Assembly: GCF_014192335.1 (NCBI RefSeq)
Contig: NZ_JACHXU010000013.1
Coordinates: forward strand, 62,001-126,000
From: Aporhodopirellula rubra
GTDB taxonomy: Bacteria; Planctomycetota; Planctomycetia; Pirellulales; Pirellulaceae
Direction of reading: 5' to 3'
DNA length: 64,000 bases
Made by a program: the position numbers and the translations under genes. Shown piece by piece: positions 17,289 to 51,311 of this stretch. The notes beneath the pieces were generated by a model. The model saw only the letters and a list, made by a program, of their open reading frames with translations. It had not been told where the DNA came from and did not search any database. Each line of letters opens with the position of its first letter. The stretch's first letter is position 1.

Positions 17289-18692
17289 ATGCAATCTCTC
17301 TTTCAGATCCGATGCCGCTCGTTTGTCATGGCGGTCCTCGGCTTGCTCGTCACGTTGCCGTTCCCCGTTGTCGCACAGGAAACGAGTCCGTCTGCGACGG
17401 TGGGGCAGGACCGAATGGATTGGTGGCGCGACGCGAAATTCGGGATGTTCATTCATTGGGGCGTCTACTCCCGCGCCGGCGGTGAATGGAATGGTGACAC
17501 GGATCACGCCGAGTGGTTGCAGTTGACCGCTAAGATTCCGTTGGCGGAATACACCGAGTACGCACGAGATTTCAATCCGGTGCAGTTCGATGCCGAACGT
17601 TGGGTCGGAATCGCAAAGGACGCCGGGATGAAGTATTTCGTCATCACGGCAAAACATCATGACGGATTCGCGATGTATGACTCCGCGAGCAACGATCACA
17701 ACATTGTGAAAGTGAGCGAATTCGGACGTGATCCTCTAAAGGAACTGGCGGCAGCGTGTCAGAAACTGGGTATCCGATTCTGTGTCTATTATTCGTTGGG
17801 CCGAGATTGGGAAGACCCCGACGTGCCAACGGGTTGGGGCGACCGGCTCGGATGGCGAAGCAACCTGATCGACTTTCCAAACGAATCCGAAAAAGACTTT
17901 CAAAAGTACTTCGATCGAAAGGTCAAACCGCAAGTCCGCGAGCTTCTGACTTCCTACGGGCCGATCGGCGTGATGTGGTTTGATACGTTTGAACAAATCA
18001 CGCGGGAGCAAAGCGAAGAGTTGATTGCGATGATTCGCGAGTTGCAGCCGAACTGCATTATCAATGACCGTGTCGGTCGCGACCTCGGTGACTACAAAAC
18101 TGCCGAACAGGAAATTCCTTCGGGTGCTTCGGGGGATCCGTGGGAAACGTGCATGACGATGAACGGTCACTGGGGCTATAACCGTGCGGATGATGATTGG
18201 CGTAGTACGCAGAACCTGCTTCAAAATCTGATCGATATCGTTAGCAAAGGTGGCAACTATTTGCTCAACGTCGGCCCGACCGGCGAAGGCGTGATTCCGA
18301 AACCGAGTGTGACGCGTTTGAACGAGATCGGTGATTGGCTGTCGGTCAACGCAGACGCTGTCTATGGCTGCGGACCGACGCCGTTCGGCGAAGAAATTGG
18401 CGGCTACAGTGAGACCGAGAAGGACAGCAAGGGCAGAGCCAAGTTCATTTCAAAGTGGCAATGGCGAGCGACGACCAAACCGGGAAAGATTTTCGTGCAT
18501 GTCTTCGAATGGCCTGACGGAGACCTGATATTGCCGAAAATCGAACGTAAGGTGAGTGTCGTTTCCGTATTATCGGATCCGGAACGAAAACCGTTAACGT
18601 TCAAACAAGCGCAAGACGAAGTCCGGATCACGCTGCCGGAGCGGAAGTCCACTTTGCCAACCGTTCTGTGCATCGAAACGCTGGAAGAATAA
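17289..18692 (+). CDS. GH29 alpha-L-fucosidase, secreted
   Basis: A 467-residue retaining fucosidase with a signal peptide (FVMAVLGLLVTLPFPVVAQE). GH29 signatures are present: FGMFIHWGVYS near residue 55, ITAKHHDGFAMYDS, and the nucleophile Asp232 in GVMWFDTFEQ. Glu286 in PWETCMT is the candidate acid/base. SKGGNYLLNVGPTGEG precedes the beta-sandwich C-terminal domain. It would release terminal fucose from fucans or fucosylated glycans outside the cytoplasm. This is the first gene of the fucan locus and the only plus-strand fucosidase. It converges on another GH29 gene. The ATG at 17289 was chosen over a TTG at 17262. Confidence 0.93.
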   Translation: MQSLFQIRCRSFVMAVLGLLVTLPFPVVAQETSPSATVGQDRMDWWRDAKFGMFIHWGVYSRAGGEWNGDTDHAEWLQLTAKIPLAEYTEYARDFNPVQFDAERWVGIAKDAGMKYFVITAKHHDGFAMYDSASNDHNIVKVSEFGRDPLKELAAACQKLGIRFCVYYSLGRDWEDPDVPTGWGDRLGWRSNLIDFPNESEKDFQKYFDRKVKPQVRELLTSYGPIGVMWFDTFEQITREQSEELIAMIRELQPNCIINDRVGRDLGDYKTAEQEIPSGASGDPWETCMTMNGHWGYNRADDDWRSTQNLLQNLIDIVSKGGNYLLNVGPTGEGVIPKPSVTRLNEIGDWLSVNADAVYGCGPTPFGEEIGGYSETEKDSKGRAKFISKWQWRATTKPGKIFVHVFEWPDGDLILPKIERKVSVVSVLSDPERKPLTFKQAQDEVRITLPERKSTLPTVLCIETLEE

Positions 18693-18806
18693 GGCGTCCG
18701 AATCGGATGTCGTCGAGACTTTTGGCGGACGGCGTGTGTGGTGGGTCCTGGTTTTTTTATTGGTTGCGACTGACGCCGTTATTTCGGATGGATTGAAAGT
18801 GAATAG

Positions 18807-18832
18807 CCGTAGGTCGCGCAACGCACCTACGG
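18807..18832. terminator. Bidirectional hairpin between convergent fucosidase genes
   Basis: A perfect 8-bp inverted repeat (CCGTAGGT/ACCTACGG) with a 10-nt loop that can pair further (GCG/CGC). It lies between two GH29 genes transcribed toward each other. A T-rich stretch follows on the plus side. Confidence 0.5.
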
Positions 18833-18922
18833 ATAATTTCTTTGATCCCTTTGGGAAACCTGCATGATTCGTTGTTTGACAACAGTTCAGGCCGGTTCCC
18901 GCTGCGTCGGCGTGGATTCACG

Positions 18923-20500
18923 CTACGGTGAAGCCAATGTTACCTTGAAGCCGACGACGAGCTCGTCGCTGAGTGATTTCGGTAGCTCGATCGTCATGCC
19001 TTTTTCCGAACGGGTCCACGAGATCGTTTCATCACTGCCCATCATCGAAACGCTTTCGATCGTCTTGTCGAGTACGCCACCGGTAGCGAGTGTTTTGATC
19101 ACGATGTCCTCCGTCGGTGTTGCCAACACAAACGCGTAGAGGTTTCCATCCTTGGTGGTCAACCGAATGTCGGCTTGGGAATAGTCTTTCTTGTTCTCGC
19201 CCTGCCGTCCCGTCTTGATCTCCAACGGACCTTCGCCGTAGACCTTCCATGGCCGGGATCCATAAATCCCTTCCGCATTGGTTCGCAACACCTCGCCAAA
19301 CGCCGTCAGATAGGCGGCTTGGTTTTCTGGAATCGTGCCGTCGCCTCGCAGTGCGATGTTCAGCATCACGACGCCGTTCTTGCTGATCGCGTCGATGGCG
19401 TTGCCGATCATCACGGGGATGCTCATTCGATTGACCGCGGTCGCACGATAGAACCAACCGCCCGAAAGATCGGTGGCCCACATCCAAGGCGTCGGCTGGA
19501 TTTCTCCTGAACTGCCTCGTTCGAGATTGTAGGTGAATCCCGCCCGGTCGGCCTTCGCGTCTTTGCATGACAGCACCACCGTCTGCTCGCCGTTGTTCTC
19601 TTGGAGATCGCGGTTGAGATAGTCGCTGAACAGTTTCAGACCCAAATTGTTTCCCGTCTTCGCAGAAGGGTACGGGCTGTCGTTGTTGAACATGTCGGGG
19701 TCGTATTTTTCGATCACATCCCAACACCGTGCGTACCAATGCTCGTTCCAAGTGTCCTGACTGGCGTACCCACGTTGGTCGTAGTCCATGTTGAAGAGTG
19801 ACCATTCCGGAGTGCCCGGTTTTTGATATTTACGGGCGTTGGCAAAGAACCGAGGTGACCAGTACAAGTGCGTCGAAACACCGAATTTCAGTCCGTGCTT
19901 TTTCGCTGCCGCTTTCCATTCCTTCAACGTGTCACGTTTGGGGCCCATTTTGACCGCGTTCCAAGGGTGGAACGAATCGTACATGTCAAAGTTGTCGTGA
20001 TGCGTCGCGACGGGCATGATGAAACGCGCGCCGTTGTGCTTGACAAACTTAGCCAGAGAATCTGGATCCCACTTCTCCGCTTTGAACAGCGGGATCAATT
20101 TCTCGTAGCCAAATTCGGACGGATGGCCGTAGCGTTCGGTGTGCCACTTCGTCAACGTTTCGCCCATGCCCAATTTTCCGGTGAAGTCATCCGGAACGAC
20201 CGAATACATCAATCGACCGTAATGCGATCCGTCATTGGGGCGGTTCTCATCAGCGGCCGATGGAATCCCCCAGTGCATCCAAACGCCGACCTTCCCATCG
20301 ACAAACCATCCCGGAACGTGGTAACGCTCGGCCATCGATTCCCAATTCGGCTCGATGGTCGGAATATCGGAGCTTGCGTTTGTCTCGGTCGCGGTTGAGG
20401 TCGATGTCGAGATCGCTGCGGTTGGGGGAGCAGCGTCGAGAGTTCCTCGATGGAACGTCAAAACGATTAGCGGAAGAAGGGCGAGTAAGTTTTTAAGCAT
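18923..20500 (-). CDS. GH29-type alpha-L-fucosidase with atypical nucleophile region
   Basis: A 525-residue secreted protein with a signal peptide (LKNLLALLPLIVLTF) and a Thr/Ser/Ala-rich linker to about residue 48. The GH29 fold is visible in WFVDGKVGVWMHWGIPS, PVATHHDNFDMYDS and AISKNGVVMLNIALRGDG. The usual WFD strand reads KYDPDMFNNDSPYP. By alignment with KYDPDLLYFDGG-type family members the nucleophile is probably Asp274, but the Trp/Tyr-Phe before it is Asn-Asn. YNLERG...PWMWATDLSGGWFY matches the ERG...PWQTD-type subgroup. Substrate preference may differ from that of its neighbours. It is the last gene of the minus-strand array. Confidence 0.85.
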   Translation of the reverse strand: MLKNLLALLPLIVLTFHRGTLDAAPPTAAISTSTSTATETNASSDIPTIEPNWESMAERYHVPGWFVDGKVGVWMHWGIPSAADENRPNDGSHYGRLMYSVVPDDFTGKLGMGETLTKWHTERYGHPSEFGYEKLIPLFKAEKWDPDSLAKFVKHNGARFIMPVATHHDNFDMYDSFHPWNAVKMGPKRDTLKEWKAAAKKHGLKFGVSTHLYWSPRFFANARKYQKPGTPEWSLFNMDYDQRGYASQDTWNEHWYARCWDVIEKYDPDMFNNDSPYPSAKTGNNLGLKLFSDYLNRDLQENNGEQTVVLSCKDAKADRAGFTYNLERGSSGEIQPTPWMWATDLSGGWFYRATAVNRMSIPVMIGNAIDAISKNGVVMLNIALRGDGTIPENQAAYLTAFGEVLRTNAEGIYGSRPWKVYGEGPLEIKTGRQGENKKDYSQADIRLTTKDGNLYAFVLATPTEDIVIKTLATGGVLDKTIESVSMMGSDETISWTRSEKGMTIELPKSLSDELVVGFKVTLASP

Positions 20501-20652: not shown

Positions 20653-22824
20653 TCAGTCGTCCTGTCGCAATCCGATTTTTGAGAGATCGATGGGAACGAT
20701 TCCCATCTCGAGGGCTGGCGAATCGGGACGGAACCGAAAGTCACCGTTTTCTGGATCGACGAACAGCGGATCAACCGCATGGCTGTTGGCGTCGACGCCG
20801 TCGCGTTGTTGTTTTTCGAGCATTTCTTTCGCCACATTGGGATCTGTCGTGCAAAAGTAAATGTTGAAGTCGGTGTCCGCATCGGCGGCGCGTGCGAGTG
20901 CTCGGCCTCTTCGGTCTTCACTCTTCCGACCGTTGGCGGGAGGCAATTCGTCGATGAAGTGACACTCAGGGTCGGCGGAATAGAAAATGTTTCGTTGGAT
21001 AGTCGCACCCGTTAACGGACCTTCACGCACGGACAAGTAGTAGCCGCGGGGTGGGGCGATCACGTTGGCGACGATGTTGTTTTCGACGCGAGTATTCAGT
21101 TTCAACATGATCCCCTGCGACGTGCATTGGTAAATCAGGTTCTCTGCGATCAGCGTATCTCGCTGTCCGCCATCGGTGCGTAACGCGCACTGCATGATCA
21201 TGGGGGCTACCAAGTGATGAATGTAATTGCGTCGGATTACATTTCCGGCACCCGCACCGCGAATGTAAATCGCGTTGCCGTCCCCGAGTTCTTCCATCAC
21301 ATGATGAATTTCGTTGTACTCGATCAGGTTATCGTGGGTGTGCAAGAACGGTCGGACTTCTTCGAGCGTTTTCTTGGACCGTGATCCACCGATCTCATGC
21401 CAACGGATGGTTCGTGTGAGTTCTCGTCCTGACTTGGAAAAGAAATCGGTCATGCAACCCGAAACAATCAATCCCGTGTAAGGCGTGTGATGGATCAAGT
21501 TGTTCGCAATTCGGTTCTCACCACTTTGCCAAACCATGATGCCGGGCGCGTGAGAGTAGATCCGCCCGGTGTGGTGAATGTGGTTGTTGTAAACGACGTT
21601 CTCGGCGTTGACGTCTTTTGTGCCCGGACCATAGCCGCAGAGCAAAATCCCGGAACCGCCGAGGTGTTCGATATGGTTGCTCTTGATTGCGTTTTTAATC
21701 CCATGGAGATCAACGCGGATCGCGCCAACACCGCTATGGGCGAAGTGACATTTTTCGACGACGCAATTCTCGGTTCCACGGAGACGCAGCATCGCGGTGT
21801 CTTTGTCGTGCATCTCCCAGTCATGCTGGAGTCCTGCATCGTCGGTGGCGAGCGTGTACCGGTCGGCATGAGTGAAACCGATCCCTCGAAAACACAAGTT
21901 GCGAACCGGCTCGTCCTCGGGCCCCGCTTTGTCGATCGATCCCTCGATGCGTACCAGTTCTCGTAGTTGTGGAGCAAAAACCGTTGACTGATTTCGCGGC
22001 CACAGATAGAGCTTGCCCTCTTTGGAATTGAGCACCCATTCGCCCGGTTCGTCGAGTTCCTCCAGGACGTTCTCGACCCAGCACGATTCCGTCTTGGGAA
22101 GAAAATGAAGCGGGTTCATCGCGTACGTCGCGTCGATCGACGTGCGAGCCACGTTTGCACTGGCATTAACGGATCTTAGAGGCAAAACATTGACAATCCA
22201 CGCGTGGTGGGGACGCACGATGATTTCGACGTCTTCCACGTTGTCCCAATTTCGCAATACGCCGGGTGGCGCATTCAACGCGGTGCGACTGCCGCCCCGG
22301 CGCGGAATGAAACCAGCCGACCGAGCCCGCGGCAGCATTCCGTCTTCGTCGAAGAGACATTTGAAATTGCCTTCGACTTCGGCGACCAGGATTTTCCCTC
22401 GAGCCTTTGCCGGTAACCCCGGAAGATCGCTTTCCACACGCCGCCAATTGCTGATCGCTCGACCAGATGAGAGCACGGGCGTCTCGTTTGGATAAGCGGC
22501 GTACGTGATTCGTGCATCGCTACTACCTGAGTCTTGCAGTCCGAACACGACAGTGTCACTAAGTGGGTAGGTGCCGCCGCGGATGGAGACCAGAATGTCG
22601 TCCGCTTGCCACTTCTTCAGTTCACGCACGGCGTCACGTGCCCGCAGGAGCGTCGCAAACGGCCCATCGGTTTGGGATTGATTTGGATCGCTTAACGTTC
22701 CTGACCAAGAGTCTGACCCGTCGGGTGAGACATAGAAGTCCGCGACCGTGTTGGCATCCGCGGCCTCGGTGATTGCGGCGTGACCGATGGTGAGAACAAA
22801 AAAGAGGGTGGATGCCAGTTTCAT
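20653..22824 (-). CDS. GH141-like right-handed beta-helix glycosidase
   Basis: A 723-residue secreted protein. The start at 22824 gives a clean signal peptide (MKLASTLFFVLTIGHAAITEA). The longer frame from 23034 would add 70 residues and overlap the sulfatase gene. The N-terminus DFYVSPDGSDSWSGT, then GPFATLLRARDAVRELKK, RGGTYPL and QDSGSSDARITYAAYP, is the pattern of GH141 (alpha-L-fucosidase/xylanase) and related parallel beta-helix proteins. Helical coils rich in Asn and His (NHIHHTGRIYSHAPGI, IHHVMEELGDGNAIY) follow from about residue 330. Fucosidase activity suits the locus, but specificity cannot be read from the sequence. Confidence 0.75.
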   Translation of the reverse strand: MKLASTLFFVLTIGHAAITEAADANTVADFYVSPDGSDSWSGTLSDPNQSQTDGPFATLLRARDAVRELKKWQADDILVSIRGGTYPLSDTVVFGLQDSGSSDARITYAAYPNETPVLSSGRAISNWRRVESDLPGLPAKARGKILVAEVEGNFKCLFDEDGMLPRARSAGFIPRRGGSRTALNAPPGVLRNWDNVEDVEIIVRPHHAWIVNVLPLRSVNASANVARTSIDATYAMNPLHFLPKTESCWVENVLEELDEPGEWVLNSKEGKLYLWPRNQSTVFAPQLRELVRIEGSIDKAGPEDEPVRNLCFRGIGFTHADRYTLATDDAGLQHDWEMHDKDTAMLRLRGTENCVVEKCHFAHSGVGAIRVDLHGIKNAIKSNHIEHLGGSGILLCGYGPGTKDVNAENVVYNNHIHHTGRIYSHAPGIMVWQSGENRIANNLIHHTPYTGLIVSGCMTDFFSKSGRELTRTIRWHEIGGSRSKKTLEEVRPFLHTHDNLIEYNEIHHVMEELGDGNAIYIRGAGAGNVIRRNYIHHLVAPMIMQCALRTDGGQRDTLIAENLIYQCTSQGIMLKLNTRVENNIVANVIAPPRGYYLSVREGPLTGATIQRNIFYSADPECHFIDELPPANGRKSEDRRGRALARAADADTDFNIYFCTTDPNVAKEMLEKQQRDGVDANSHAVDPLFVDPENGDFRFRPDSPALEMGIVPIDLSKIGLRQDD

Positions 22825-22945
22825 CGAATCTCGAATGATTGCGCGCGTGGTGGTCCAACGCCAATTGCGAGTCGATGTCCCGCCACGCGTGGAGGGCAGA
22901 TTGAGTATTTGTCGCGTTGTTGGATTGGACAGTGGATGCATGACG

Positions 22946-24343
22946 CTATTTTCTCTTGGTGACACAACAGGATTCGTTTGGCGCCGTTGGGAGAGTGGAT
23001 TCCCACGCGGTGATCTTTTGTGTGAGTTGCTCAACGATCTCCGGGTTCTGCTGAGCGACGTTTTGAGTTTCTGCCCAATCGTTCTGCTCGTCGTAGAGTT
23101 CGATTCGTTGCTGTTCGTGGTTGACTAGTAATTTCCATCGTCCGTCGCGGATTCCAGTTGAGGGCCACGTGTACTCTTTGGACTCGCCTCCCCGCCACTG
23201 CCAGAAAATGGGTTTGGTGCGACTGATTGGCGTTCCTTGGAAGGCCGCAAAGACATTCTCGCCATCGGGGGCGAAGCCTTCGGGAAGCGATACACCGGCG
23301 ACATGCAGGAAGGTGGGCAGGAGGTCGACCGCCGTGATGACGGAGGTTTTGTCGACACGTCCGGCCGGAACAACCGCCGGCCATCGCACGATAAAAGGAA
23401 CGCGGATGCCGCCGGCGAAGAGAGATCGCTTTCTGCCTTTGAGTCCACCTGATTCGCCGACCGAATAGTAACCGCCTAAACCCGGTTCTCCCTTTCGATG
23501 AATCTTGTCGCCTGGACCTCGAGTCGCTTCCGGCCCATTGTCGGTGGAGAACACGACGAGCGTCTTCTCATCAATGGCGAGTTCCTTAAGCAGCGACAAG
23601 ATGCGACCGACACCCTCGTCGCCTTCGGCAATGATCGACGCGTAGACCCTTTGTTGCTCGTTGAGCTCGCTGAACTTTTGAAGGTATCGTTCCTGCGGGA
23701 AATGGGCGAGGTGAGCTTCGTGAAGCCAGAGATTTACAAAGAACGGTTCGTCTTTGTTGGCCCTCATGAACCTCTCCGCATGATCAACCGATGCCAATCC
23801 GTCTTTTTTGATTTCCTTCTTCTTCGATCCGTTGAACGTCGCAAAGTCGTCGTAGCCGTATTGGTCTTCCGTGGGGACTCCCGCCCCGCCGCCGAGATGC
23901 CACTTTCCGAAATGTCCCGTTTTGTAACCGGCCTGCTGTAGCATTCGTGGCAACGATGGCCCCTGCGGATCCAACCAATCGGGCATGCCACGTTTGCGGT
24001 TGGATGCGACGCCCGCGAAATGTTGATGGATGCATTGCCGGGCAGGAAACTGTCCCGTCATCACGGCGACGCGGCTGGGCGAGCACACGGGACTGTTGAC
24101 GGTGAAATTGGTGAAGTCGATTCCCTCGGCGGCCATTTGGTCGAGAGAGGGCGTTTGGCAAAATGAACTGCCGTGACAACTTAGGTCGCCATATCCCCAA
24201 TCATCCGCGAAGATGAAAATGATATTCGGTCCTGCAGGCGAGTCATCCGCCTGAACCGTTGCCGCGGGGTTGGGCAGCAATAACGAAACCGCGACGATCG
24301 GTAGCCATCGTGCGATAGAATATAACGGTTGCATGGGATTCAT
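22946..24343 (-). CDS. Sulfatase, FGly type (CSPSR)
   Basis: A 465-residue secreted sulfatase (alkaline-phosphatase superfamily, PF00884 type). The signal peptide covers about residues 1-32. Metal-binding Asp47-Asp48 is in IFADDWGYGD. Cys87 in VCSPSR is the residue converted to formylglycine. GKWHLGGG carries the conserved Lys/His pair, and STDNGPEA the second Asp-Asn metal site. The active-site helper region reads LHEAHLAHF, unlike the NAPHGP type of some neighbours. It ends in a Cys-Cys-containing tail (NESCCVTKRK). The upstream neighbour is another sulfatase and the downstream one is the GH141-like protein, so it probably desulfates fucan side groups. Confidence 0.92.
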   Translation of the reverse strand: MNPMQPLYSIARWLPIVAVSLLLPNPAATVQADDSPAGPNIIFIFADDWGYGDLSCHGSSFCQTPSLDQMAAEGIDFTNFTVNSPVCSPSRVAVMTGQFPARQCIHQHFAGVASNRKRGMPDWLDPQGPSLPRMLQQAGYKTGHFGKWHLGGGAGVPTEDQYGYDDFATFNGSKKKEIKKDGLASVDHAERFMRANKDEPFFVNLWLHEAHLAHFPQERYLQKFSELNEQQRVYASIIAEGDEGVGRILSLLKELAIDEKTLVVFSTDNGPEATRGPGDKIHRKGEPGLGGYYSVGESGGLKGRKRSLFAGGIRVPFIVRWPAVVPAGRVDKTSVITAVDLLPTFLHVAGVSLPEGFAPDGENVFAAFQGTPISRTKPIFWQWRGGESKEYTWPSTGIRDGRWKLLVNHEQQRIELYDEQNDWAETQNVAQQNPEIVEQLTQKITAWESTLPTAPNESCCVTKRK

Positions 24344-24530: not shown

Positions 24531-26321
24531 TTAGAAGGATTCAACTTCGGTGAAATAGGCTCCACCTGCTTTGCCGTTATTGTCGTAGAACCACGTCACT
24601 AATTCGGTTGGTCCGGTCGGCAGTTCGATGTCGAACACAACTCCGCGGCTGTCCGGTTTCACGTCGAGTTCATGCGTTTGACCGGCGATCTCCAACTTGG
24701 CTCGAACGGCAACGATGGGCTTGTCAGCCTCTTTAGGCATCTGCCGTAGTGTGATGCGATAGCGTCCCGCTTTCCTGACATCGAGCATCCAAGGTCCGGT
24801 GACGCGGGGGCGTCTGGCAATCGAGCCGAAATTCCACGGTGGGTTTCCACTCGGCATGTACCAATCCTGTGAGCAGAGCACGGTTGGGTTGTTCGTCGGA
24901 TTTCCAACATCGATGCGAACGGGTGTGAGCCTCGGTGATACTTTTTCCCAAAATGATTGGTACGCAGTCCGTAGTCTGGTCACGACTTCCGGGTGTTCGT
25001 CGGCGACGTTGTTTCGTTGTGCCGGATCGGCGAGAATGTCAAACAAGCCTTGTCCGTTCGAATTGACCAAACGCCATCGGTGATCCATCACGACGGAGTA
25101 CTCCAATGGCTGAGGCGGGAATGCTCTGGCGTGGGCGCCCGCGTGGAACTGCACCACATGATGATCGCGAGGGAGTTCCGGTTCCGATTCGCTGCGTTGG
25201 GCGTCGTCGAGTTTGGTGTGCTCGAGCAACGGTTTCAACGAGATTCCGTTGGGTTTGTAATCGTCCGAAACTGGGATTCCGCAGAGGTCCGCCAACGTTG
25301 GCAGGACATCGATATGAGCCGCCTGCGTGTGGACGTCTTTCCCGCCGACGAGACCAGCCTGAGGCCAATGAAGAAAGAACGGCACGCGGTGCCCACCGTC
25401 GTAGAGCGAGGATTTCTTGCCTCGCATTCCGGCGTTGTATCCCAATTTGGCTTCCGAGTCCAAACCGTCGAATTTTGCTCCACTGGCCGTGCCGTTGTCG
25501 GTCATGAAGATCAGAATCGTGTTCTCGGCGAGACCGAGTCGAGCGATTCGATCGCGGAGGATTCCAACGTTGTGATCGATGTTCGCGATCATCCCGTAGA
25601 AGTTAGGATTGGTTACTGATCGATTGCCGGTGTACGGTTCCGCCCACTCAGGCGGCACTCGATAAGGACCATGCGGCGCATTGAGTGCGAGGTAGAGGAA
25701 GAACGGTTTCGTTTGATTCTCTTCGATGAATCGGATGCCCTCGCGGAACCACACGTCGGTGCAATAACCTTCGAACTTTTCGAACCGACCGTTGCGTTCG
25801 TATGTGTCGTCGAAATAGTCGTTGCCCCAATAGTCCGACGCTTGACCAACCCCACCACACCGGTGCCAGACGACGTCTTGGAATCCTCGGTCTTGGGGAC
25901 GATGCGGGGCATTATCACCAAGATGCCATTTGCCGACCATGCCGGTGACGTATCCGTTGTCGCCGAAGAGATTCGCGATAGTCTTTTCATCGCGATGCAT
26001 CATCGTGCGTCCCGAACTCGTTCGATACGCTCCGGTATATCCCGGATAGTTACCCGTCATCAGCGCCGCACGTGTTGGGGTGCAGAACGGACTGACATGA
26101 AAATCGGTGAAGCGAATTGAATTCGCACTCAGGCGATCGATGTTGGGCGTCTTCAGGATTGGATTTCCGTGACAACTCAGATCCCCGTAGCCTTGATCGT
26201 CCGTCATAACCAACACCACGTTCGGACGTGTTGCCGAATTGGTATCTGCATTGACGCGTACGAGTGAATGGCAGGATGTTCCCAAGAGAATCAGGAATGC
26301 GATCGTTCGAATAATCATCAT
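24531..26321 (-). CDS. Sulfatase, FGly type (CTPTR), with C-terminal domain
   Basis: A 596-residue secreted sulfatase. The signal peptide lies within residues 1-25. Asp41-Asp42 is in [16 protein letters not shown]. Cys80 in FCTPTR is the FGly residue, with Thr rather than Ser at +3. GKWHLGDN and LNAPHGPY complete the site. It is a clear paralogue of the 36493-38310 sulfatase: both have the CGGVGQ/AGGVGQ...[12 protein letters not shown] and FEGYCTD segments. Both also carry an extra C-terminal beta-rich domain (here from about residue 455, GPWMLDVRKAGRYRITLRQMP) that may bind carbohydrate. A hexanucleotide tandem repeat begins 23 bases upstream of its ATG. Confidence 0.92.
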   Translation of the reverse strand: MMIIRTIAFLILLGTSCHSLVRVNADTNSATRPNVVLVMTDDQGYGDLSCHGNPILKTPNIDRLSANSIRFTDFHVSPFCTPTRAALMTGNYPGYTGAYRTSSGRTMMHRDEKTIANLFGDNGYVTGMVGKWHLGDNAPHRPQDRGFQDVVWHRCGGVGQASDYWGNDYFDDTYERNGRFEKFEGYCTDVWFREGIRFIEENQTKPFFLYLALNAPHGPYRVPPEWAEPYTGNRSVTNPNFYGMIANIDHNVGILRDRIARLGLAENTILIFMTDNGTASGAKFDGLDSEAKLGYNAGMRGKKSSLYDGGHRVPFFLHWPQAGLVGGKDVHTQAAHIDVLPTLADLCGIPVSDDYKPNGISLKPLLEHTKLDDAQRSESEPELPRDHHVVQFHAGAHARAFPPQPLEYSVVMDHRWRLVNSNGQGLFDILADPAQRNNVADEHPEVVTRLRTAYQSFWEKVSPRLTPVRIDVGNPTNNPTVLCSQDWYMPSGNPPWNFGSIARRPRVTGPWMLDVRKAGRYRITLRQMPKEADKPIVAVRAKLEIAGQTHELDVKPDSRGVVFDIELPTGPTELVTWFYDNNGKAGGAYFTEVESF

Positions 26322-29992: not shown

Positions 29993-29997
29993 GGCAA

Positions 29998-43885: not shown

Positions 43886-43933
43886 TAGGTTTCCAAGGAG
43901 TGAGACGTGGGGACAAAGGAAAGTGAGAAAATC

Positions 43934-43969
43934 AACGCCCGGCCCAAATGAAATTTGAGGCCGAGCGTT
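43934..43969 (-). terminator. Intrinsic terminator/attenuator between DUF1559 and lipoprotein genes
   Basis: Nested pairing AACGC/GCGTT, GGCC/GGCC and CAAAT/ATTTG around a 3-nt loop, with small internal loops, forms a long stem 13 bases after the DUF1559 stop. GATTTTCTC follows on the minus strand. It would reduce expression of the downstream lipoprotein relative to DUF1559. Confidence 0.7.
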
Positions 43970-43981
43970 CGTCACGAGTTT

Positions 43982-45163
43982 CTAAAACTCGGATTCGATA
44001 ACTTCTTTGGAGGCCCGGGTACCGAGAGCACCCCAGAGCCCATAGGGGCTTTGCGAGCCGGGCTTGTTGTTCAGCCAAATGTTGCGAGCTTTCGGGTTGC
44101 CCGCTTCGATCGAGTCGGTGATGAATTTGATCGCACCGTCTCCCATCAAAACATGGGCACCGCCTTGGTGCCGGCTGGACATGGTCGCGACCATCGTCGT
44201 GCCCGCTGCGTTGTAGGCACCGCAGAGTTCGCGGTTAGGCGGAAGGATCGTCATGCAGCCCGTGTAAAGGGGTTGGAAGTCAGCCCATTTGTAACCGCGT
44301 CCGTGGGTCGCATTGACGTTGACGGTATGAGCCGGATCCCAGAATTGAGGACGATCAGGGAGGACTTTGCCAACGCACGCCGATGGGTTGTTACGAACCT
44401 GACCAAACGTTGGTGTTCGGTTCGAATTGTCACGCCAGCCGACAGTCCGTTTGTCGTCGTCACCAAGTGCGGTGGCAATTTCTCCAGCGGCGATCGTGTT
44501 GGACAAGCCGTCGAGGCAATCACGGAATCGAGTCCGGTCTACCGGCTTGAAGAATCCGCGGTGTGCGGCTCGAGCTCCTTCTTGGCCGTTTTTGTTTGTC
44601 CGGTTGCCGTTCCAGGGGCCGTTGTTCTGGGCAACGATCGAGTCGCCGACGCATGCGGCATAGTTCGTCCGTCCGAGTGCGGGGAGGCCTTGGCCCGGAT
44701 CGCTCGGGCAGCGGAATCCCGGAATGTCGGTTGCCCATGGTCCGTACGCCAAACGATCAGGAGTCGGTCCCATTGCCGGGTATGTTGTTCCGGTGGGATT
44801 GGATATCTGTTCCCACAGTGCTTGTTGCTCAATAAACGGTGTGATGCCCACGAGCATGCTGAGGCGGTAACGGTTGCCTTGGTCGGATGATCGCCAGGAG
44901 GCCCAAGGGCCGTTGACGGTGTTGTTCGCGCCGACCAAGGGTTGGGTTCCGGTGCCGTGTGTTGGCAATTGTTTGTAGGCGGAGTGATAGTTGTGAATGG
45001 CGAGCCCAATTTGCTTGAAATTGTTGCTGCAGCTCATTCGCCGTGCCGCCTCTCGTGCCGCTTGGACCGCGGGGAGAAGAAGCCCGACCAAAACACCAAT
45101 AATTGCGATGACGACGAGTAATTCCACCAGCGTGAAGCCGCGTCGAATTTTTGACTGAGTCAT
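43982..45163 (-). CDS. DUF1559 domain protein with type IV pilin-like N-terminus
   Basis: A 393-residue protein. The N-terminus RRGFTLVELLVVIAIIGVL is a prepilin peptidase substrate with Glu5 after cleavage at G-F. It is followed by LLPAVQAAREAARRMSC, the classic start of DUF1559. The C-terminal motif HVLMGDGAIKFI is the family's H-X3-DG signature. Planctomycete genomes carry tens to hundreds of these, and they are thought to form surface fibres or pseudopili; the function is unproven. Its place between the fucosidase array and the sensor kinase suggests a surface role in substrate capture, which is inference only. Confidence 0.9.
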   Translation of the reverse strand: MTQSKIRRGFTLVELLVVIAIIGVLVGLLLPAVQAAREAARRMSCSNNFKQIGLAIHNYHSAYKQLPTHGTGTQPLVGANNTVNGPWASWRSSDQGNRYRLSMLVGITPFIEQQALWEQISNPTGTTYPAMGPTPDRLAYGPWATDIPGFRCPSDPGQGLPALGRTNYAACVGDSIVAQNNGPWNGNRTNKNGQEGARAAHRGFFKPVDRTRFRDCLDGLSNTIAAGEIATALGDDDKRTVGWRDNSNRTPTFGQVRNNPSACVGKVLPDRPQFWDPAHTVNVNATHGRGYKWADFQPLYTGCMTILPPNRELCGAYNAAGTTMVATMSSRHQGGAHVLMGDGAIKFITDSIEAGNPKARNIWLNNKPGSQSPYGLWGALGTRASKEVIESEF

Positions 45164-45918: not shown

Positions 45919-47961
45919 ATGGTTCGATACCGTCTCTCGCTGCTGTTGCTATGCCTTCTGTTTGTTGCTCATTACGCGGGTCTGCGTGTTGCGCACGCGG
46001 ATGCCGGATTGTATGGAACGGTCGGTGCCAAGCCGATTCCTGTTCGTGAATTGAAGTTGCAGTTGAGCAAACTTTCGCTGACCGAATTGGAACGGCGTCT
46101 CGAAACGATCGATAGCCAACTCGAATGGTTGTGTCCGATCAGTCTTCGCAGTGGGGTCGGTGCGGTCGGCATCCGTTCGTCGGTGCGATCGGATCCGCAT
46201 CACGCGGAGTGGTTTGAGGTTGAGTTGGCTGAGGCGGTGCCGGTTCATTACATCGCATTGGTGCCGACGATTTGGCGTGACACGAAGACAGGGTTGCGTG
46301 CGGACGGTTTTCCGATTGAGTTTCGTGTTGTGGTGGGGACCGATGGCGACTCCGAGGGAACGGTCGTGGCGAGTTATTCCGCCGAAGACCGTTTGTTGCC
46401 TCGAATCGCACCGCTGGTGGTGGAGTGTCCCGGGATTATCGCATCGTGGGTGCGGGTGGAGGCGATCGAGTTGTCGCCTCGTTTGTGGGATTCGCAATAC
46501 GTGTTCCAGCTATCAGAGCTGTTCGTGTTCAGCGGCGATGAGAACGTGGCGCAAAGCCGACCGGTGCGAACCTCTTCGAGTTCAGTGGCCGAGGGCAGAC
46601 ACCGTCGATACCTCGTCGACGGTTTCGTCCCGTATCTGATGGACGCCCGGGAAGGCGAGCAGAGCATTGCGTTTTTGCGTGAAGGTGCAGCGGATGGCGA
46701 CTACGAATTTACGATCGATCTGGGTGCGACGAGGCCACTGAATCGTATCCATCTTCATGCGATCGACTTGAGTGATACGATCCCGCAAGCAAACCGAGAT
46801 GGCATCGGTATTCCAAAACAGATGCGGTTGGAAGGAGCCAATCAGCCGGATTTTTCAGACGCGGTGCTGTTGCAAGAATTTGACTTCCCCACGGTTTACG
46901 ATTTGGGCCCGATCATCATGCGTCGGTTTCCCAAAACACCGTGTCGCTATGTGCGTTTGACTGCGATCGAGCCCGACGCGATCATGCGAGGTGGCAAGCT
47001 AACTCCCCGGATCGGGTTTGCCGAAATCGAGTTGTTTTCTGATGAGAAGAACGTGGCCGCTGAACTCCCCTTCGAGGCCAATTTCGTCGTCTATAACCCA
47101 ATGCGACCTTTGTCGGCGTTGACCGACGGTCGGAATTTCTATGGTACGATTCTGCCGATCCGCGAATGGATGATTGAATTAGCGCTTCGGCATGAGTTAG
47201 AGACCGAGCGTCCGTACGTGGCAGAAGAACTGAATCGACGTTACTCGCAACAGAAAGTTCACCTGACGTGGTTAACGTGGTTGGCTGTGTTGCTGGCCGT
47301 CGGTATTGGTGTCACGATCATGATTGACCGAGTGGTTCGCATGCGTCAGTTGGCGAACTTGAAGGAGCGATTTGCAGCGGACCTTCACGATGAGCTCGGC
47401 GCGAACTTGCACGTGATCGGGTTGCTCGGCGATCTCGCGCAGGCCGCGGTTGGTTCGCCGAAAAAATTGAAGAGTCTGCATCAGCGGATTCGCGTCATGA
47501 CGGAGCGATCGGGAACGGCGGTGCAGTACTGCACGAACATCTTGGAAGCCAAGGGACTGTACCAAGATTTGTACGAAGACATGCAACGTACGACACAGCG
47601 GATCATGGCCGACATCGATGGTGAGTTATCGTTCGAGGGAGACGCGGACGTCCTCAAACGACTCGGCCCCCGTACGCGAGCGGACTTATTTCTGTTTTAC
47701 AAAGAGTGTTTGGTGAATATCAGTCGTCATAGTCAGGCGACTCAATTCGACGCGCATTTGACCGCGTCGGGGAGTGATCTTTCGCTGGTGGTGAGCGATA
47801 ACGGGCACGGACTGACGGCTCCATTGGCGAACAAGGTTCCCCCATCGCTGCAACGTCGAGCACGGTTGCTCGGTGCCCAGGTCACCGCGAAGCATCCCAG
47901 CGAAGGTGGGACACACATTGAACTCAATCTGCGTACCCGGAAATGGGGACGCCGCAAATAG
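45919..47961 (+). CDS. Sensor histidine kinase with discoidin-like extracytoplasmic domain
   Basis: A 680-residue membrane sensor. The signal peptide (RLSLLLLCLLFVAHYAGLRVAHA) is followed by about 400 residues of two beta-sandwich units resembling F5/8 type C domains: WFEVELAEAVPVHYIALVP, then YEFTIDLGATRPLNRIHLHA and CRYVRLTAIE. These folds commonly bind sugars. One transmembrane helix (about 452-471, LTWLAVLLAVGIGVTIMI) leads to a HisKA_3 helix with phospho-acceptor His490 in AADLHDELGANLH. A HATPase domain (DNGHGL; no long lid) follows, so it is a NarL-family kinase. The response regulator begins nine bases after the stop. Sensing of fucan fragments is inferred from the position. Confidence 0.9.
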   Translation: MVRYRLSLLLLCLLFVAHYAGLRVAHADAGLYGTVGAKPIPVRELKLQLSKLSLTELERRLETIDSQLEWLCPISLRSGVGAVGIRSSVRSDPHHAEWFEVELAEAVPVHYIALVPTIWRDTKTGLRADGFPIEFRVVVGTDGDSEGTVVASYSAEDRLLPRIAPLVVECPGIIASWVRVEAIELSPRLWDSQYVFQLSELFVFSGDENVAQSRPVRTSSSSVAEGRHRRYLVDGFVPYLMDAREGEQSIAFLREGAADGDYEFTIDLGATRPLNRIHLHAIDLSDTIPQANRDGIGIPKQMRLEGANQPDFSDAVLLQEFDFPTVYDLGPIIMRRFPKTPCRYVRLTAIEPDAIMRGGKLTPRIGFAEIELFSDEKNVAAELPFEANFVVYNPMRPLSALTDGRNFYGTILPIREWMIELALRHELETERPYVAEELNRRYSQQKVHLTWLTWLAVLLAVGIGVTIMIDRVVRMRQLANLKERFAADLHDELGANLHVIGLLGDLAQAAVGSPKKLKSLHQRIRVMTERSGTAVQYCTNILEAKGLYQDLYEDMQRTTQRIMADIDGELSFEGDADVLKRLGPRTRADLFLFYKECLVNISRHSQATQFDAHLTASGSDLSLVVSDNGHGLTAPLANKVPPSLQRRARLLGAQVTAKHPSEGGTHIELNLRTRKWGRRK

Positions 47962-47969
47962 GCAGCAAC

Positions 47970-48641
47970 ATGAATAATCGAATTCGAGTGATGTTGGTCG
48001 AAGACCACCCTGAGTACCGCGAAGTCATTCAATTGGCTCTCGAGGATGAGCCCGATATTGAGTTGGCCGATCAGGTCGGTTCGTCCGAGCGGGCGTTGTC
48101 GGTGCTGCAGCACAGTGGTCACCGTGAGATGCCTGACTTAATTTTGTTGGATCTGAACTTGCCGGGCGATTCCGGTTTGGACGTGTTGCCCGCGTTTCGT
48201 TCCATCACGCCCGAAACGAAGGTCGTGATCCTGACGCAGTCGGGCAAAGAGGCTGATGTGTTGCGGGCGATTCGAGAGGGAGCGTCGGGATACCTACTGA
48301 AATCATCGACCGTGACCCAAATTGTCGATGCGATCCGCACGGTGGCGTCCGGTGGGGCGATGCTGGACAGCGGTGTGGCGAAGTATGTATTGGATACATT
48401 GCAATCGAGCGTCAAGCAGCCCGAGTTGTTGCATTCGCTTTCGCAACGGGAATTAGAAATTCTTCGCTTGCTAAGCGAAGGGTTGGTGAAAAAAGAGGTC
48501 GCACATCAACTCGATATCAGTGTTAGTAGCGTGGCCACGTATATCCGTCGAGTCTATGAAAAACTCGATGTCCAAAACGCGCCGGCAGCCGTTAACAAAG
48601 CCTATCGATTAGGTATCTTCCCGACGGACGGTGGCAATTGA
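47970..48641 (+). CDS. NarL/FixJ-type response regulator
   Basis: A 223-residue DNA-binding regulator. The receiver domain (residues about 5-120) has the acidic pair Glu11-Asp12 (VEDHPE) and phospho-acceptor Asp61 in LILLDLNLPGD. Thr and Lys switch residues are in VILTQSG and GYLLKSS. The C-terminal LuxR-type helix-turn-helix is SQRELEILRLLSEGLVKKEV...VATYIRRVYEKL. The ATG at 47970 follows the kinase stop by nine bases; an ATG at 47943 overlaps the kinase gene and adds nine residues. It is the cognate partner of the upstream kinase and a likely regulator of the fucan genes on both sides. Confidence 0.93.
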   Translation: MNNRIRVMLVEDHPEYREVIQLALEDEPDIELADQVGSSERALSVLQHSGHREMPDLILLDLNLPGDSGLDVLPAFRSITPETKVVILTQSGKEADVLRAIREGASGYLLKSSTVTQIVDAIRTVASGGAMLDSGVAKYVLDTLQSSVKQPELLHSLSQRELEILRLLSEGLVKKEVAHQLDISVSSVATYIRRVYEKLDVQNAPAAVNKAYRLGIFPTDGGN

Positions 48642-48661
48642 GTCTTTAGAGAGGGCTGATC

Positions 48662-48678
48662 GCGTAAACGAATTACGC
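48662..48678 (+). terminator. Hairpin after response regulator gene
   Basis: GCGTAA/TTACGC, 6 bp with a 5-nt loop, 21 bases past the regulator stop. No U-tract follows, so it may be only a weak pause or processing site. Confidence 0.3.
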
Positions 48679-48914
48679 AGTCGCGAAGTCAATAGATCGG
48701 GTTCGGTTCGTTGAGGCGTTGGCGAGCGTCCAACGCGCATGCGATCAGGGCGATCACTCGGCGGGGTTGTTAGAAGGGGAGTCATTGGGTCGCGTGTTGC
48801 CCCGGTAGAAAAGCACCTCTTCTTGGAGTTTAATTGCGCTTCCCCTCCTGGCCGTATCGGCCGATCCCAGCGACTGTCTCGCAGTCGTCCTGCCTCCCAA
48901 TCCCACCAAATAAA

Positions 48915-51311
48915 ATGTACGCACGCGTCGTTTTCTCGGTTTTAAGTTTGAGTCTTGCCGTGGCCGCGAACGGTCAGGCGATCGAACAGCCGGCACATTC
49001 GTTTCCTGAATACAATCAGCGATTCATTGAGAATCAACTTGCGCCCATTAGGGTGCCAGGAAAGAGTTTTTATGTTTCTCCATCGGGCGAAGAAGGGGAC
49101 GGGTCCCGCGAACGCCCTTTCCACAGCTTGGAAGCGGCTCGTGATGCGGTTCGTGAGCTTAAGAAGACCGATGGGTTGCCAGACGGAGGCGTGCAGATCC
49201 GTTTGCTAGCGGGGAACTACACTCGTGGAAAAACGTTCGTTCTCGAAGAGCAGGATTCCGGAACGGATCACGCTCCGATTGTCTATCGCGGACAGAGTAC
49301 CGACACCGTGATCCTGTCGAGTGGACAGCCATTGCCTGCGAGAGAATTGAAGGTTGTTGAGGACAGCGGCGTTTTGACATGGCTGCATCCGTCGGCGCGT
49401 GGACGAGTGATGTCGATGAAGGTGTCCGACGAGGTCGCGGCGAGTCTTCCCGGTGAAGGCAATTACGGAATGCTCTCGATGGACGGGCATTTGTTGCCGT
49501 TGGCTCAATGGCCCAACCGCGGATACAACCACATTGATCAAGTGATTGAAGAGGGGCCAAAGACGCGGCACTTGGGGCCTGGCGAAGCACCGGTCGCCTA
49601 CAGCAAGGAGAACCCAACGGGCGGAATTTTCAATACACGCGAATCATTGTCTCCGATGGTCGCGAAGGAGTTTGAGCGGACCGGCGACATGCAGGTTCAA
49701 GGCTATCTGCACAATGATTGGTATTTTCAAGCCGAGCCGATTGGCGGGGTCAACGAAGGCGAGATTCAGTTACTGCGTTACACGCGATATGGGATCGCAC
49801 AGAAGATTCATTCGATTCCACGGCGAGTCCGGTTGGTAAACGTGTTGGCGGAACTGGACGAACCGGGCGAGTGGTATTTTGATCGCAACGAAAAGCGATT
49901 ATTCGTGTGGCCGATTCCTGGATTTCATCCGGAGCGTTCGAGCATGGTCGTGCTCGGGAGTGCGGCGGCGGAGTCGAGCCGATCGGGAGACGGGGAATCC
50001 GCGGATGAGTTGATGATCGATTTGCGGGGGACGTCGTACGTTACGCTGCTCAATCTCACACTCGAGAACTCAGGGCGTCTCGGGGTGCGAATCTCAGGTG
50101 GTGAATACAATTTGATCGGAGGGTGTCGAGTCCGGAACGGATACAGCAAGGGAGTGTCGATCGAGGGAGGCTCTCATAACGGGATCACGGGGTGTGAGTT
50201 TCATGACCTCGAGTCCGCGTTTAGTATCTCGGGCGGAAATGTTCGTCAGCTAGAACGTTGCTACAACTTTGCTACCAACAATGACATTCATTCCTGCCGC
50301 AGGCGTGGATACGGAATGATCGGTCTCAGCGGTGTTGGGATCTACTTCGCGCATAATGTTTTGCATGACATGAACGGTGCGGTGAACTACGACACGGTCG
50401 ATGCGTTGTTGGAATACAACGAGTTTTTCAACATCGGTTATGAGATGGGCGATTTCAACGTCGCGTATTGCGGTGCCAAATGGCACATGATGAATAACGT
50501 CGTGCGGTACAACTTCGTTCATCATTTGCTCGAGCCCGGGGGGCACCCGGTCTTCCCGTTTCGAAATGACGATGGCGGGATGGGGCTGCAGATTTATGGC
50601 AACGTTTTCTATCGCTCGGGACGCGGCGGCGGTCAATTTGCGGGGCCGCTGAACTCCTTTCAAAACAACATCACTTTGAAAGGCAGCGTGATGTGGTGGA
50701 CGAACAAGCGTGCAATCACGCCCCAAGAAATCGCCGATGAATGGAAGAGTCTGGAGAAATTTGGACGGGATTTACCGCATGGTGACAAAGGGGACAACAT
50801 CTATCTATTGAACCGATTGCTGGGAGAGAGGGGTTGGGAAAAAAGTCCCTGGATCGATGAGTTTCCTCGGCTCGCGGAGACGATCGAAACGAACCCGTTC
50901 TCGCAGACGTTTTGTCAAGTCAACTTGAACTATGTCCATGAGGTCCGAGAGCCTTTTCACATCCATGGTGGGGACGGCACGGTCGAGGGGATGGAAAGTA
51001 ACGCGATTGGGCAGTTCAAGGATCTGCCGAAGAACGGATCGTTTCTTTTGCCAGAGGAGATCGACCTCAACGCTTTTGCGAGCGTTCCGAAACTCGATTT
51101 CAGGATGAAACAGGGTTTCCGTCCGATGCCGGGTTTTAAGCCAATCCCGTTTGAGGGTATTGGTTTCCAGCGCGACGAGTTTCGGCCGAATCCACCCAAC
51201 AAAGACGCGTATCGATCCAAGGTGTTCCGGAAATTTTTCAAGGATGCGGGGGGGCGATATCATTCTGAGCGTGTGAACGCGAGATACCCGCAGCCTTCGT
51301 ATCTTCCCTAA
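48915..51311 (+). CDS. GH141-like right-handed beta-helix glycosidase (second copy)
   Basis: A 798-residue secreted protein. The ATG at 48915 gives a signal peptide (YARVVFSVLSLSLAVAANGQA); a TTG at 48834 would add 27 unlikely residues. The N-terminal fold is FYVSPSGEEGDGSRERPFHSLEAARDAVRELKK in pattern (about residues 50-85), then LLAGNYTRGKTFVLEEQDSGT. The coil region (NSGRLGVRISGGEYNL, NGYSKGVSIEGGSHN) and the HHLLEPGGHPVFPFRNDDGG segment match the 20653 protein in architecture, but the sequences are clearly diverged. It likely acts on fucosylated or xylosylated polysaccharide. It follows the regulator on the same strand with a 273-base gap that probably holds its own promoter. Confidence 0.75.
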   Translation: MYARVVFSVLSLSLAVAANGQAIEQPAHSFPEYNQRFIENQLAPIRVPGKSFYVSPSGEEGDGSRERPFHSLEAARDAVRELKKTDGLPDGGVQIRLLAGNYTRGKTFVLEEQDSGTDHAPIVYRGQSTDTVILSSGQPLPARELKVVEDSGVLTWLHPSARGRVMSMKVSDEVAASLPGEGNYGMLSMDGHLLPLAQWPNRGYNHIDQVIEEGPKTRHLGPGEAPVAYSKENPTGGIFNTRESLSPMVAKEFERTGDMQVQGYLHNDWYFQAEPIGGVNEGEIQLLRYTRYGIAQKIHSIPRRVRLVNVLAELDEPGEWYFDRNEKRLFVWPIPGFHPERSSMVVLGSAAAESSRSGDGESADELMIDLRGTSYVTLLNLTLENSGRLGVRISGGEYNLIGGCRVRNGYSKGVSIEGGSHNGITGCEFHDLESAFSISGGNVRQLERCYNFATNNDIHSCRRRGYGMIGLSGVGIYFAHNVLHDMNGAVNYDTVDALLEYNEFFNIGYEMGDFNVAYCGAKWHMMNNVVRYNFVHHLLEPGGHPVFPFRNDDGGMGLQIYGNVFYRSGRGGGQFAGPLNSFQNNITLKGSVMWWTNKRAITPQEIADEWKSLEKFGRDLPHGDKGDNIYLLNRLLGERGWEKSPWIDEFPRLAETIETNPFSQTFCQVNLNYVHEVREPFHIHGGDGTVEGMESNAIGQFKDLPKNGSFLLPEEIDLNAFASVPKLDFRMKQGFRPMPGFKPIPFEGIGFQRDEFRPNPPNKDAYRSKVFRKFFKDAGGRYHSERVNARYPQPSYLP

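What the first reader, a model, noticed from the sequence alone, without database searches (positions are those of the whole stretch)
17289..51311. 34-kb sulfated-fucan degradation locus
Eight sulfatases, five GH29 fucosidases, two GH141-like beta-helix proteins and one GHL15-like protein are packed with a sensor kinase/regulator pair. Fourteen enzyme genes run in one minus-strand array with overlaps or gaps as small as 4-5 bases. The dominance of fucosidases and absence of other glycosidases point to a fucose-rich sulfated polymer such as fucoidan. The specific gene set and its uncharacterised members (GHL15-like, GH141-like, atypical GH29) may define a new pathway variant.
Basis: partly seen in the sequence, partly recalled or inferred. 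Interest (0 to 1): 0.85.

Follow-up and report, generated by a model that had tools for sequence, protein, structure and literature searches.

The report
Planctomycete locus for eating fucoidan
This stretch of a marine bacterium's genome packs together the enzymes expected to strip sulfate from, cut up and finish off fucoidan, the tough sulfated sugar polymer of brown seaweed; such loci are known in related bacteria, and the least familiar part is the sensor gene beside it.

Summary
In detail: 8 sulfatases, 5 GH29 fucosidases, 2 beta-helix proteins and one "GHL15" protein, 14 of these 16 genes in one minus-strand array, beside a sensor kinase and a response regulator. The fucan reading is supported and sharpened. 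The GHL15 protein is a GH168-type endo-fucanase: its model matches 9f9v from "Planctomycetota strain 892" at 94% identity, and it keeps the Asp changed in a GH168 endo-1,3-fucanase mutant structure. So "no other glycosidases" and "uncharacterised GHL15" fail; the set is the known GH29/GH141/GH168/S1 fucoidan kit. Rhodopirellula sallentina has a smaller version at the same address. The less ordinary part is the sensor: tandem discoidin-like domains plus a DesK-like kinase. Relatives occur across Planctomycetota and Verrucomicrobiota, followed by a NarL-type regulator in 73 of 78 loci. In planctomycetes GH29, beta-helix and DUF1559 genes lie near them more often than in random regions, but sulfatases are not significantly enriched. 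Four literature searches showed no description of this sensor family. Verdict: a new member of a known kind of locus, with a possibly new kind of glycan sensor.

The parts
17289..18692 (+). GH29 alpha-L-fucosidase, convergent with the array
   Evidence: PF01120 E 2e-92; in R. sallentina only about 500 bases separate gyrB and the beta-helix gene, so it is missing there
18923..20500 (-). GH29 fucosidase with C-terminal domain
   Evidence: PF01120 E 4e-68, PF16757; nearest solved chains 7ljj, 7lnp (exo-alpha-L-galactosidase) and 7snk (alpha-L-fucosidase)
20653..22824 (-). GH141-like right-handed beta-helix enzyme; mechanical ORF runs to 23034, likely start at the signal peptide near 22824
   Evidence: PF13229, weak GH141_M; 9rx2 E 1.5e-298 and BT_1002 (5mqp) E 7e-9
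22946..24343 (-). S1 sulfatase, CSPSR motif
   Evidence: 75% homologue in R. sallentina
24531..26321 (-). S1 sulfatase, CTPTR motif
   Evidence: absent from the matching place in R. sallentina
26457..27911 (-). S1 sulfatase, CGPSR motif (ORF to 27995)
28139..30019 (-). GH29 fucosidase with an N-terminal extension of about 180 residues
   Evidence: PF01120 E 2e-72 at residues 183-520
29998..31470 (-). S1 sulfatase, CAPTR motif (ORF to 31599)
31512..32918 (-). S1 sulfatase, CSPSR motif (ORF to 33176)
32968..34449 (-). S1 sulfatase, CSPSR motif
34446..36086 (-). S1 sulfatase, CTPSR motif
36493..38310 (-). S1 sulfatase, CAPTR motif; lies within a few genes of the GH168 gene in three genomes
   Evidence: 83% in R. 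sallentina and 81% in G001
38504..39688 (-). GH168-type endo-fucanase (Pfam GHL15)
   Evidence: PF14885; AF2 model pLDDT 85.7; 9f9v 94% id, 9nhf, 8rg3, 9joo, 8ya7; Asp176
39685..41151 (-). GH29 fucosidase; R. sallentina has none at this place
   Evidence: PF01120 E 4e-79
41279..43093 (-). GH29 fucosidase, conserved in R. sallentina (84%)
   Evidence: PF01120 E 3e-72; 9rzy E 8.5e-223, 9rzx E 7e-218
43694..43975 (-). small putative lipoprotein (likely start at an internal ATG; ...VACGCSD lipobox judged by eye)
   Evidence: ORF; reading frame conserved in R. sallentina; no NCBIfam hit
43982..45163 (-). DUF1559 (SBP_bac_10) pseudopilin-like protein
   Evidence: PF07596 E 2e-64, N_methyl; pre_pil_HX9DG and IV_pilin_GFxxxE; 94% in R. 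sallentina
45919..47961 (+). sensor kinase: signal/TM, tandem discoidin-like domains (about residues 72-400), TM about 451-475, DesK-like HisKA_3/HATPase (H490, N600, D627, G629)
47943..48641 (+). NarL/LuxR-type response regulator, overlaps the sensor gene by 19 bases
   Evidence: PF00072, PF00196
48834..51311 (+). second beta-helix protein, distantly GH141-like
   Evidence: PF13229; 9rx2 E 9e-18, BT_1002 E 6e-7; 75% in R. sallentina

Best explanation
This is a fucoidan (sulfated alpha-L-fucan) utilisation locus of a marine Rhodopirellula-like planctomycete. Proposed sequence of events: the GH168 endo-fucanase, and probably one or both GH141-like beta-helix proteins, cut the backbone; eight formylglycine-type S1 sulfatases remove sulfate at different positions; five GH29 fucosidases release L-fucose. 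The sensor kinase detects the glycan or its fragments through two discoidin-like domains outside the cytoplasm and signals through its NarL-type partner to transcribe the DUF1559-lipoprotein-enzyme array. Shown here: the families, the near-identity of the GH168 protein to a solved planctomycete enzyme, its catalytic Asp by alignment, the sensor's architecture, and conservation of much of the locus in R. sallentina. Inferred: substrate, order of attack, ligand of the sensor, the regulated promoters, and any role of DUF1559.
For: Families. GH168: the model has as its 17 best PDB chains 9f9v plus chains titled GH168, endo-1,3-fucanase or PbFucA; sequence searches agree; the residue changed in the endo-1,3-fucanase mutant 9jp3 (D171A) aligns with window Asp176, invariant in 23 of 23 aligned homologues. 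GH141-like 20653 and GH29 41279 are close to solved chains 9rx2, 9rzx, 9rzy. Fusions in the same genome: beta-helix plus GHL15 in one 1112-residue frame; GH29 plus sulfatase in one frame of about 1279 residues. Same-address locus in R. sallentina. Sensor: internal repeat, hhalign probability 99.5; F5/8C models hit in 17-18 of 22 members and HisKA_3/HATPase_c in 22 of 22 at E up to 1; neuropilin-2 discoidin domain by profile, E 8e-4; DesK kinase by fold and profile. Relatives reported to grow on or degrade fucoidan: PMC12642873 (passages), PMC12078418 (passages).
Against: No activity or expression data. GH141 and GH29 members act on several glycans, so the polymer could be a fucan of animals or diatoms. 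GH29 18923-20500 has exo-alpha-L-galactosidases among its nearest solved chains. GH141_M is below Pfam's cut-off for 20653 and absent for 48834. The window sensor itself gives no F5/8C hit. Sulfatases are not significantly enriched round planctomycete sensors (7 of 13 vs 14 of 40 random, p = 0.19), and 4 of those 13 stretches hold none of the four enzyme families, so the sensor family is not fucan-specific. The sensors lack the F-type-lectin fucose motif as I recall it (0 of 22). BMC shell genes occur in all 13 genus genomes, so they do not track the locus.
Confidence: 0.8

Rival explanations
1. The locus targets a different fucose-containing sulfated glycan (diatom polysaccharide, fucosylated galactan, sea-cucumber or sea-urchin fucan) rather than brown-algal fucoidan.
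For: Many of the solved GH168 homologues are titled endo-1,3-fucanase, and one complex (9jog) holds a fucotetraose said in its title to be from the sea cucumber Holothuria tubulosa; the PMC12786026 introduction names animal and diatom fucans as fucoidan-like polymers; exo-alpha-L-galactosidases are among the nearest solved chains of one GH29.
Against: A kelp-surface Rhodopirellula isolate grows on purified kelp fucoidan (PMC12642873, passages), and the 94%-identical enzyme 9f9v is from a planctomycete. Neither was tested for this strain.
Confidence: 0.25
2. The sensor-regulator pair is an envelope or pseudopilin (DUF1559) regulator that only happens to lie beside the enzymes.
For: DUF1559 lies within 2 kb of 8 of 13 planctomycete sensors vs 3 of 40 random intervals; DUF1559, sensor and regulator are the best conserved proteins of the locus between the two species (94, 91 and 91%); 4 of 13 sensor stretches show none of the four enzyme families.
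Against: GH29 in 5 of 13 vs 1 of 40 (p = 0.002) and beta-helix in 4 of 13 vs 1 of 40 (p = 0.01), window included; in named genomes the immediate upstream neighbour is a sulfatase in 12 of 67 and the downstream one in 11 of 65, though without a matched control.
Confidence: 0.25
3. The array is a relic or a pile-up of local duplicates with little joint function.
For: The genome has 156 sulfatase and 23 GH29 matches, so clusters could arise by local duplication; sulfatase 24531 is no closer to any fetched homologue (45%) than to its neighbour 36493 (44%).
Against: The 8 sulfatases share at most 44% identity with each other, while 7 of 8 have homologues of 63-84% in other genomes; all 8 active-site motifs are intact; part of the gene order is kept in R. 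sallentina.
Confidence: 0.04

Closest known systems
Fucoidan gene clusters of marine Planctomycetota (Perez-Cruz et al. 2024, Nat Commun 15:10906; paper not held; known here only through a citing passage)
   Same: A marine planctomycete with a fucoidan gene cluster; the window GH168 protein is 94% identical to 9f9v from Planctomycetota strain 892. That strain 892 belongs to this paper is recalled, not checked
   Different: Gene order could not be compared; the window strain differs from strain 892 at this gene
Rhodopirellula sallentina SM41 locus (G012 contigs C90 and C273; equated by contig number, length and match)
   Same: Same address: gyrAB on one side, recQ on the other; beta-helix, sulfatases, GH168, GH29 41279, lipoprotein, DUF1559, sensor, regulator, second beta-helix
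   Different: Lacks 4 of the 5 GH29 genes and sulfatase 24531 at the matching places; has an acetyl-xylan-esterase-like gene between sulfatase 36493 and GH168, where the window has a 193-base gap; the middle falls in a contig gap
Bacteroidota fucoidan cluster of Wenyingzhuangia fucanilytica (PMC12786026, abstract and introduction)
   Same: GH29, GH141, GH168 and S1 sulfatases are the families it lists for fucoidan degraders; its GH141 enzymes are endo-fucanases
   Different: No SusC/SusD-like or TonB hit among the 30 window proteins scanned
Hybrid two-component systems (HTCS) of Bacteroides (recalled)
   Same: Membrane sensor with an outer glycan-sensing part, encoded in a glycan locus
   Different: Here discoidin-like domains, DesK-type kinase and a separate NarL-type regulator
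Pontiella agarivorans (PMC10880615, passages)
   Same: Histidine kinase (PF07730, PF02518) and regulator noted near GH and sulfatase genes in some cases
   Different: The passages seen do not describe the sensor domains or a family

Membership tests
GH168 (endo-fucanase) | Sequence and fold of characterised members | tested here: met
   9f9v, 9nhf, 8rg3, 9joo, 8ya7 by fold and by sequence
GH168 (endo-fucanase) | Catalytic Asp | tested here: met
   Position changed in mutant 9jp3 aligns with Asp176; invariant in 23 of 23
GH168 (endo-fucanase) | Endo-cleavage of sulfated fucan | not testable with these tools
   needs an enzyme assay
GH141 | Sequence relation to characterised GH141 | tested here: inconclusive
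   20653: BT_1002 E 7e-9 over about 100 residues, GH141_M 21.4 bits under the cut-off of 27, strong match to 9rx2 whose activity is not stated; 48834: BT_1002 E 6e-7
S1 sulfatase | PF00884 and C-x-P-x-R formylglycine motif | tested here: met
   8 of 8
GH29 | PF01120 above cut-off | tested here: met
   5 of 5
PUL in the strict sense | SusC/SusD-like pair | tested here: not met
   none among 30 window proteins scanned; the window's remaining ORFs were not scanned
HTCS | Sensor, kinase, receiver and AraC domain in one protein (recalled definition) | tested here: not met
   separate kinase and NarL-type regulator
DesK/HisKA_3 sensor kinases | HisKA_3 phosphoacceptor His and HATPase with N and G boxes | tested here: met
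   22 of 22 members by Pfam at E up to 1, window member itself below the cut-offs; H490, N600, D627, G629 invariant; DesK
Discoidin (F5/8C) domain | Profile match and tandem repeat | tested here: met
   17-18 of 22 members, not the window member itself; neuropilin-2 by family profile, first domain only; internal repeat; strand-rich model

The most novel reading that the evidence does not exclude
The sensor belongs to a PVC-superphylum family of tandem-discoidin, DesK-type sensor kinases with NarL-type regulators that detect polysaccharides and switch on glycan-degradation loci: a counterpart of the Bacteroidota HTCS, with a DUF1559 pseudopilin and a lipoprotein as conserved partners in planctomycetes where Verrucomicrobiota loci often carry a TonB-type receptor.
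Probability: 0.4. Interest if true: 0.65.

Novelty: new member of a known kind. Interest (0 to 1): 0.42.

Why it matters
Fucoidan is a slowly turned-over carbon store that few bacteria degrade. The enzyme set here is of a known kind, so it adds a well-defined member and a natural comparison (window strain versus R. sallentina) of which genes are core. The sensor family, if it does sense glycans, would help to answer how planctomycetes and verrucomicrobia decide when to express their very many sulfatases and hydrolases, and would give a marker for predicting their substrates.

Tried and rejected
GHL15 as an uncharacterised family: overturned by fold and sequence. Sensor as an F-type fucose lectin: a motif recalled by me was found in 0 of 22. 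A simple insertion of the locus between gyrB and recQ: in the single-contig genomes G002 and G003 the two genes lie more than a megabase apart, so no empty site was defined. Sulfatase enrichment round planctomycete sensors: not significant. BMC genes as a co-occurring marker: present in all 13 genus genomes, so uninformative. A regulator binding motif: only two orthologous intergenic regions were aligned; long blocks are conserved and no motif is claimed.

Limits of counts. Its neighbour families use profiles built from window proteins at E 1e-6, the GHL15 and sensor profiles from single sequences (sulfatase in 44, GH29 in 24 of 78, many loci cut by contig ends). Of 68 upstream neighbours 67 were scanned, one dropped for length; all 65 downstream neighbours were scanned. 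For planctomycete neighbours 74 of the 81 listed were scanned; only the top 25 families of each tally are printed. The 13 sensor stretches include the window, one broken sensor (L074), one stretch of 17 kb and several probable orthologues (L075-L078; L069 and L070), and come from five genomes, while the 40 random ones come from two; its p-values therefore overstate the evidence. The one random region with GH29 and beta-helix is the window locus itself. DUF1559 anywhere in the stretch: 9 of 13 vs 9 of 40 (p 0.003).

Papers: PMC12786026 abstract and introduction; PMC10880615, PMC8857213, PMC12078418, PMC12642873, PMC13380512 and PMC5765458 passages only; Perez-Cruz et al. 2024 not held. That the sensor family is undescribed rests on searches, of which only the listings (15 of 42 papers) and passages of PMC10880615 and PMC8857213 were seen; the library misses most subscription journals.


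Full report
OBSERVATION. The window is G000:C13:62001-126000 of an 8.55-Mb, 75-contig genome. Fourteen enzyme genes lie on the minus strand. The clustering is far above the genome's own rate of about one sulfatase match per 55 kb: 8 in 15.4 kb. Of 40 random 20-kb regions from G000 and G001, only the one that fell on this locus had 8.

ENZYMES. All 8 sulfatases keep the C-x-P-[ST]-R motif. They share at most 44% identity with each other, while 7 of 8 have homologues of 63-84% in other genomes and the eighth, 24531, one of 45%. The GHL15 protein was modelled from 23 sequences (pLDDT 85.7, pTM 0.86). Its best PDB match is 9f9v, "892_05174 from Planctomycetota strain 892" (94% identity, TM 0.89/0.97), followed by a GH168 enzyme (9nhf), PbFucA (8rg3) and the endo-1,3-fucanases Fun168E, Fun168A and Fun168D; the next matches, alpha-galactosidases, fall to E about 1e-10. 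Sequence searches agree. The residue replaced in the D171A mutant 9jp3 aligns with window Asp176, invariant in 23 of 23 homologues. The beta-helix protein 20653 is close to the solved chain 9rx2 (996 bits; its activity is not stated) and distantly related to BT_1002; the beta-helix protein 48834 is more distant. GH29 41279 is close to 9rzy and 9rzx. GH141 members from a Bacteroidota fucoidan cluster are endo-fucanases (PMC12786026, abstract), so the two beta-helix proteins are candidates for a second endo-activity; this is inference. In the same genome, contig C14 carries a beta-helix/GHL15 fusion and a GH29/sulfatase fusion, which supports a shared substrate.

EVOLUTION. R. sallentina has the locus at the same address. 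On contig C90, gyrA and gyrB are followed by the beta-helix gene (76%) and sulfatases 22946 (75%), 26457 (74%) and 29998 (75%). On contig C273 lie sulfatase 36493 (83%), an acetyl-xylan-esterase-like gene, GH168 (70%), GH29 41279 (84%), the lipoprotein, DUF1559 (94%), sensor (91%), regulator (91%), the second beta-helix (75%) and recQ (79%). At the matching places it lacks GH29 17262, 18923, 28139 and 39685 and sulfatase 24531; the middle is in a contig gap. Whether the window strain gained these or R. sallentina lost them is open. In 6 other genus genomes the 16-17 kb downstream of gyrB hold no close homologue of locus genes, only single distant sulfatases (26-32%) in three; in G008 the contig ends there, and four genus genomes were not examined. 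GH29 numbers in the genus are split: 10-25 matches in five genomes counting the window's own, 1-4 in the other eight.

SENSOR. The 680-residue sensor has a signal or TM segment, two repeats of one domain (hhalign probability 99.5), a TM helix near 451-475 and a kinase. Among 22 family members, HisKA_3 and HATPase_c are hit in 22 and F5/8C models in 17-18 at E up to 1, best 2e-18; the window member itself has no F5/8C hit. A family profile of the outer part finds the neuropilin-2 discoidin domain (E 8e-4). The kinase half resembles DesK by fold and profile. A NarL-type regulator follows on the same strand in 73 of 78, and the upstream neighbour is divergent in 53 of 68. Immediate upstream neighbours are sulfatases in 12 of 67 and TonB-plug proteins in 12 of 67; downstream, sulfatases in 11 of 65. 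In planctomycetes, against 40 random regions: GH29 5 of 13 vs 1 of 40 (p 0.002), beta-helix 4 of 13 vs 1 of 40 (p 0.01), DUF1559 within 2 kb 8 of 13 vs 3 of 40 (p 2e-4), any of the four enzyme families 9 of 13 vs 14 of 40 (p 0.03), sulfatase 7 of 13 vs 14 of 40 (p 0.19). Several of the 13 are probable orthologues and one is the window, so these p-values are optimistic; 4 of 13 had none of the four enzyme families. Neighbours of planctomycete sensors also include GH95 (2 of 74), GH115 (3 of 74), esterase-like BD-FAE (3 of 74) and DUF2961 (4 of 74) proteins, so the family probably senses various glycans rather than fucan alone.

MECHANISM. Most likely, fucan fragments bind the outer discoidin-like domains, the kinase phosphorylates the NarL-type regulator, and the regulator activates the divergent DUF1559-lipoprotein-enzyme unit and itself. 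Only the architecture and gene order are shown; ligand, phosphotransfer and promoter binding are inferred. DUF1559 is pseudopilin-like, and the genome has 112 such matches. It stands where the named, mostly verrucomicrobial loci have a TonB-plug protein in 12 of 67, which suggests, but does not show, a role in glycan capture.

KNOWN OR NEW. GH29, GH141, GH168 and S1 sulfatases are the standard fucoidan kit (PMC12786026 introduction). Gene clusters for fucoidan in marine planctomycetes were published (Perez-Cruz et al. 2024, not held, cited in PMC12078418), and a kelp Rhodopirellula grows on fucoidan (PMC12642873, passages). The locus is therefore a new member of a known kind. A histidine kinase and regulator near such genes were noted in Pontiella agarivorans (PMC10880615, passages), without the sensor domains in what I saw. 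Searches showed no description of the discoidin sensor family.

Noticed in passing
G000:C14:186001-224000 (L092, L093): A second sulfatase/GH29/GHL15 cluster in the same genome, with a beta-helix/GHL15 fusion of 1112 residues and a GH29/sulfatase fusion of about 1279 residues.
   Followed up: partly
G000:C13:230660-232645 (L074): A sensor paralogue in the same genome is interrupted by a stop codon and is split in two pieces, flanked by DUF1559 genes.
   Followed up: no
window 53936-55027: A 363-residue protein hits several helix-turn-helix families at different places along its length, divergent from recQ.
   Followed up: no
L063:3167-4423: R. sallentina has an acetyl-xylan-esterase-like gene between sulfatase 36493 and GH168, where the window has only a short gap; acetylation of the substrate may differ between strains.
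   Followed up: partly
named loci L099-L176, upstream neighbours: 12 of 67 immediate upstream neighbours of the sensor relatives are TonB-plug proteins, a possible uptake partner, mostly in Verrucomicrobiota-type genomes.
   Followed up: partly
G000:C12:20223-20806: Two BMC shell matches; all 13 genus genomes have two, regardless of the fucan locus.
   Followed up: partly
window 58441-60864: An 807-residue protein with a dockerin type I domain outside the locus.
   Followed up: no
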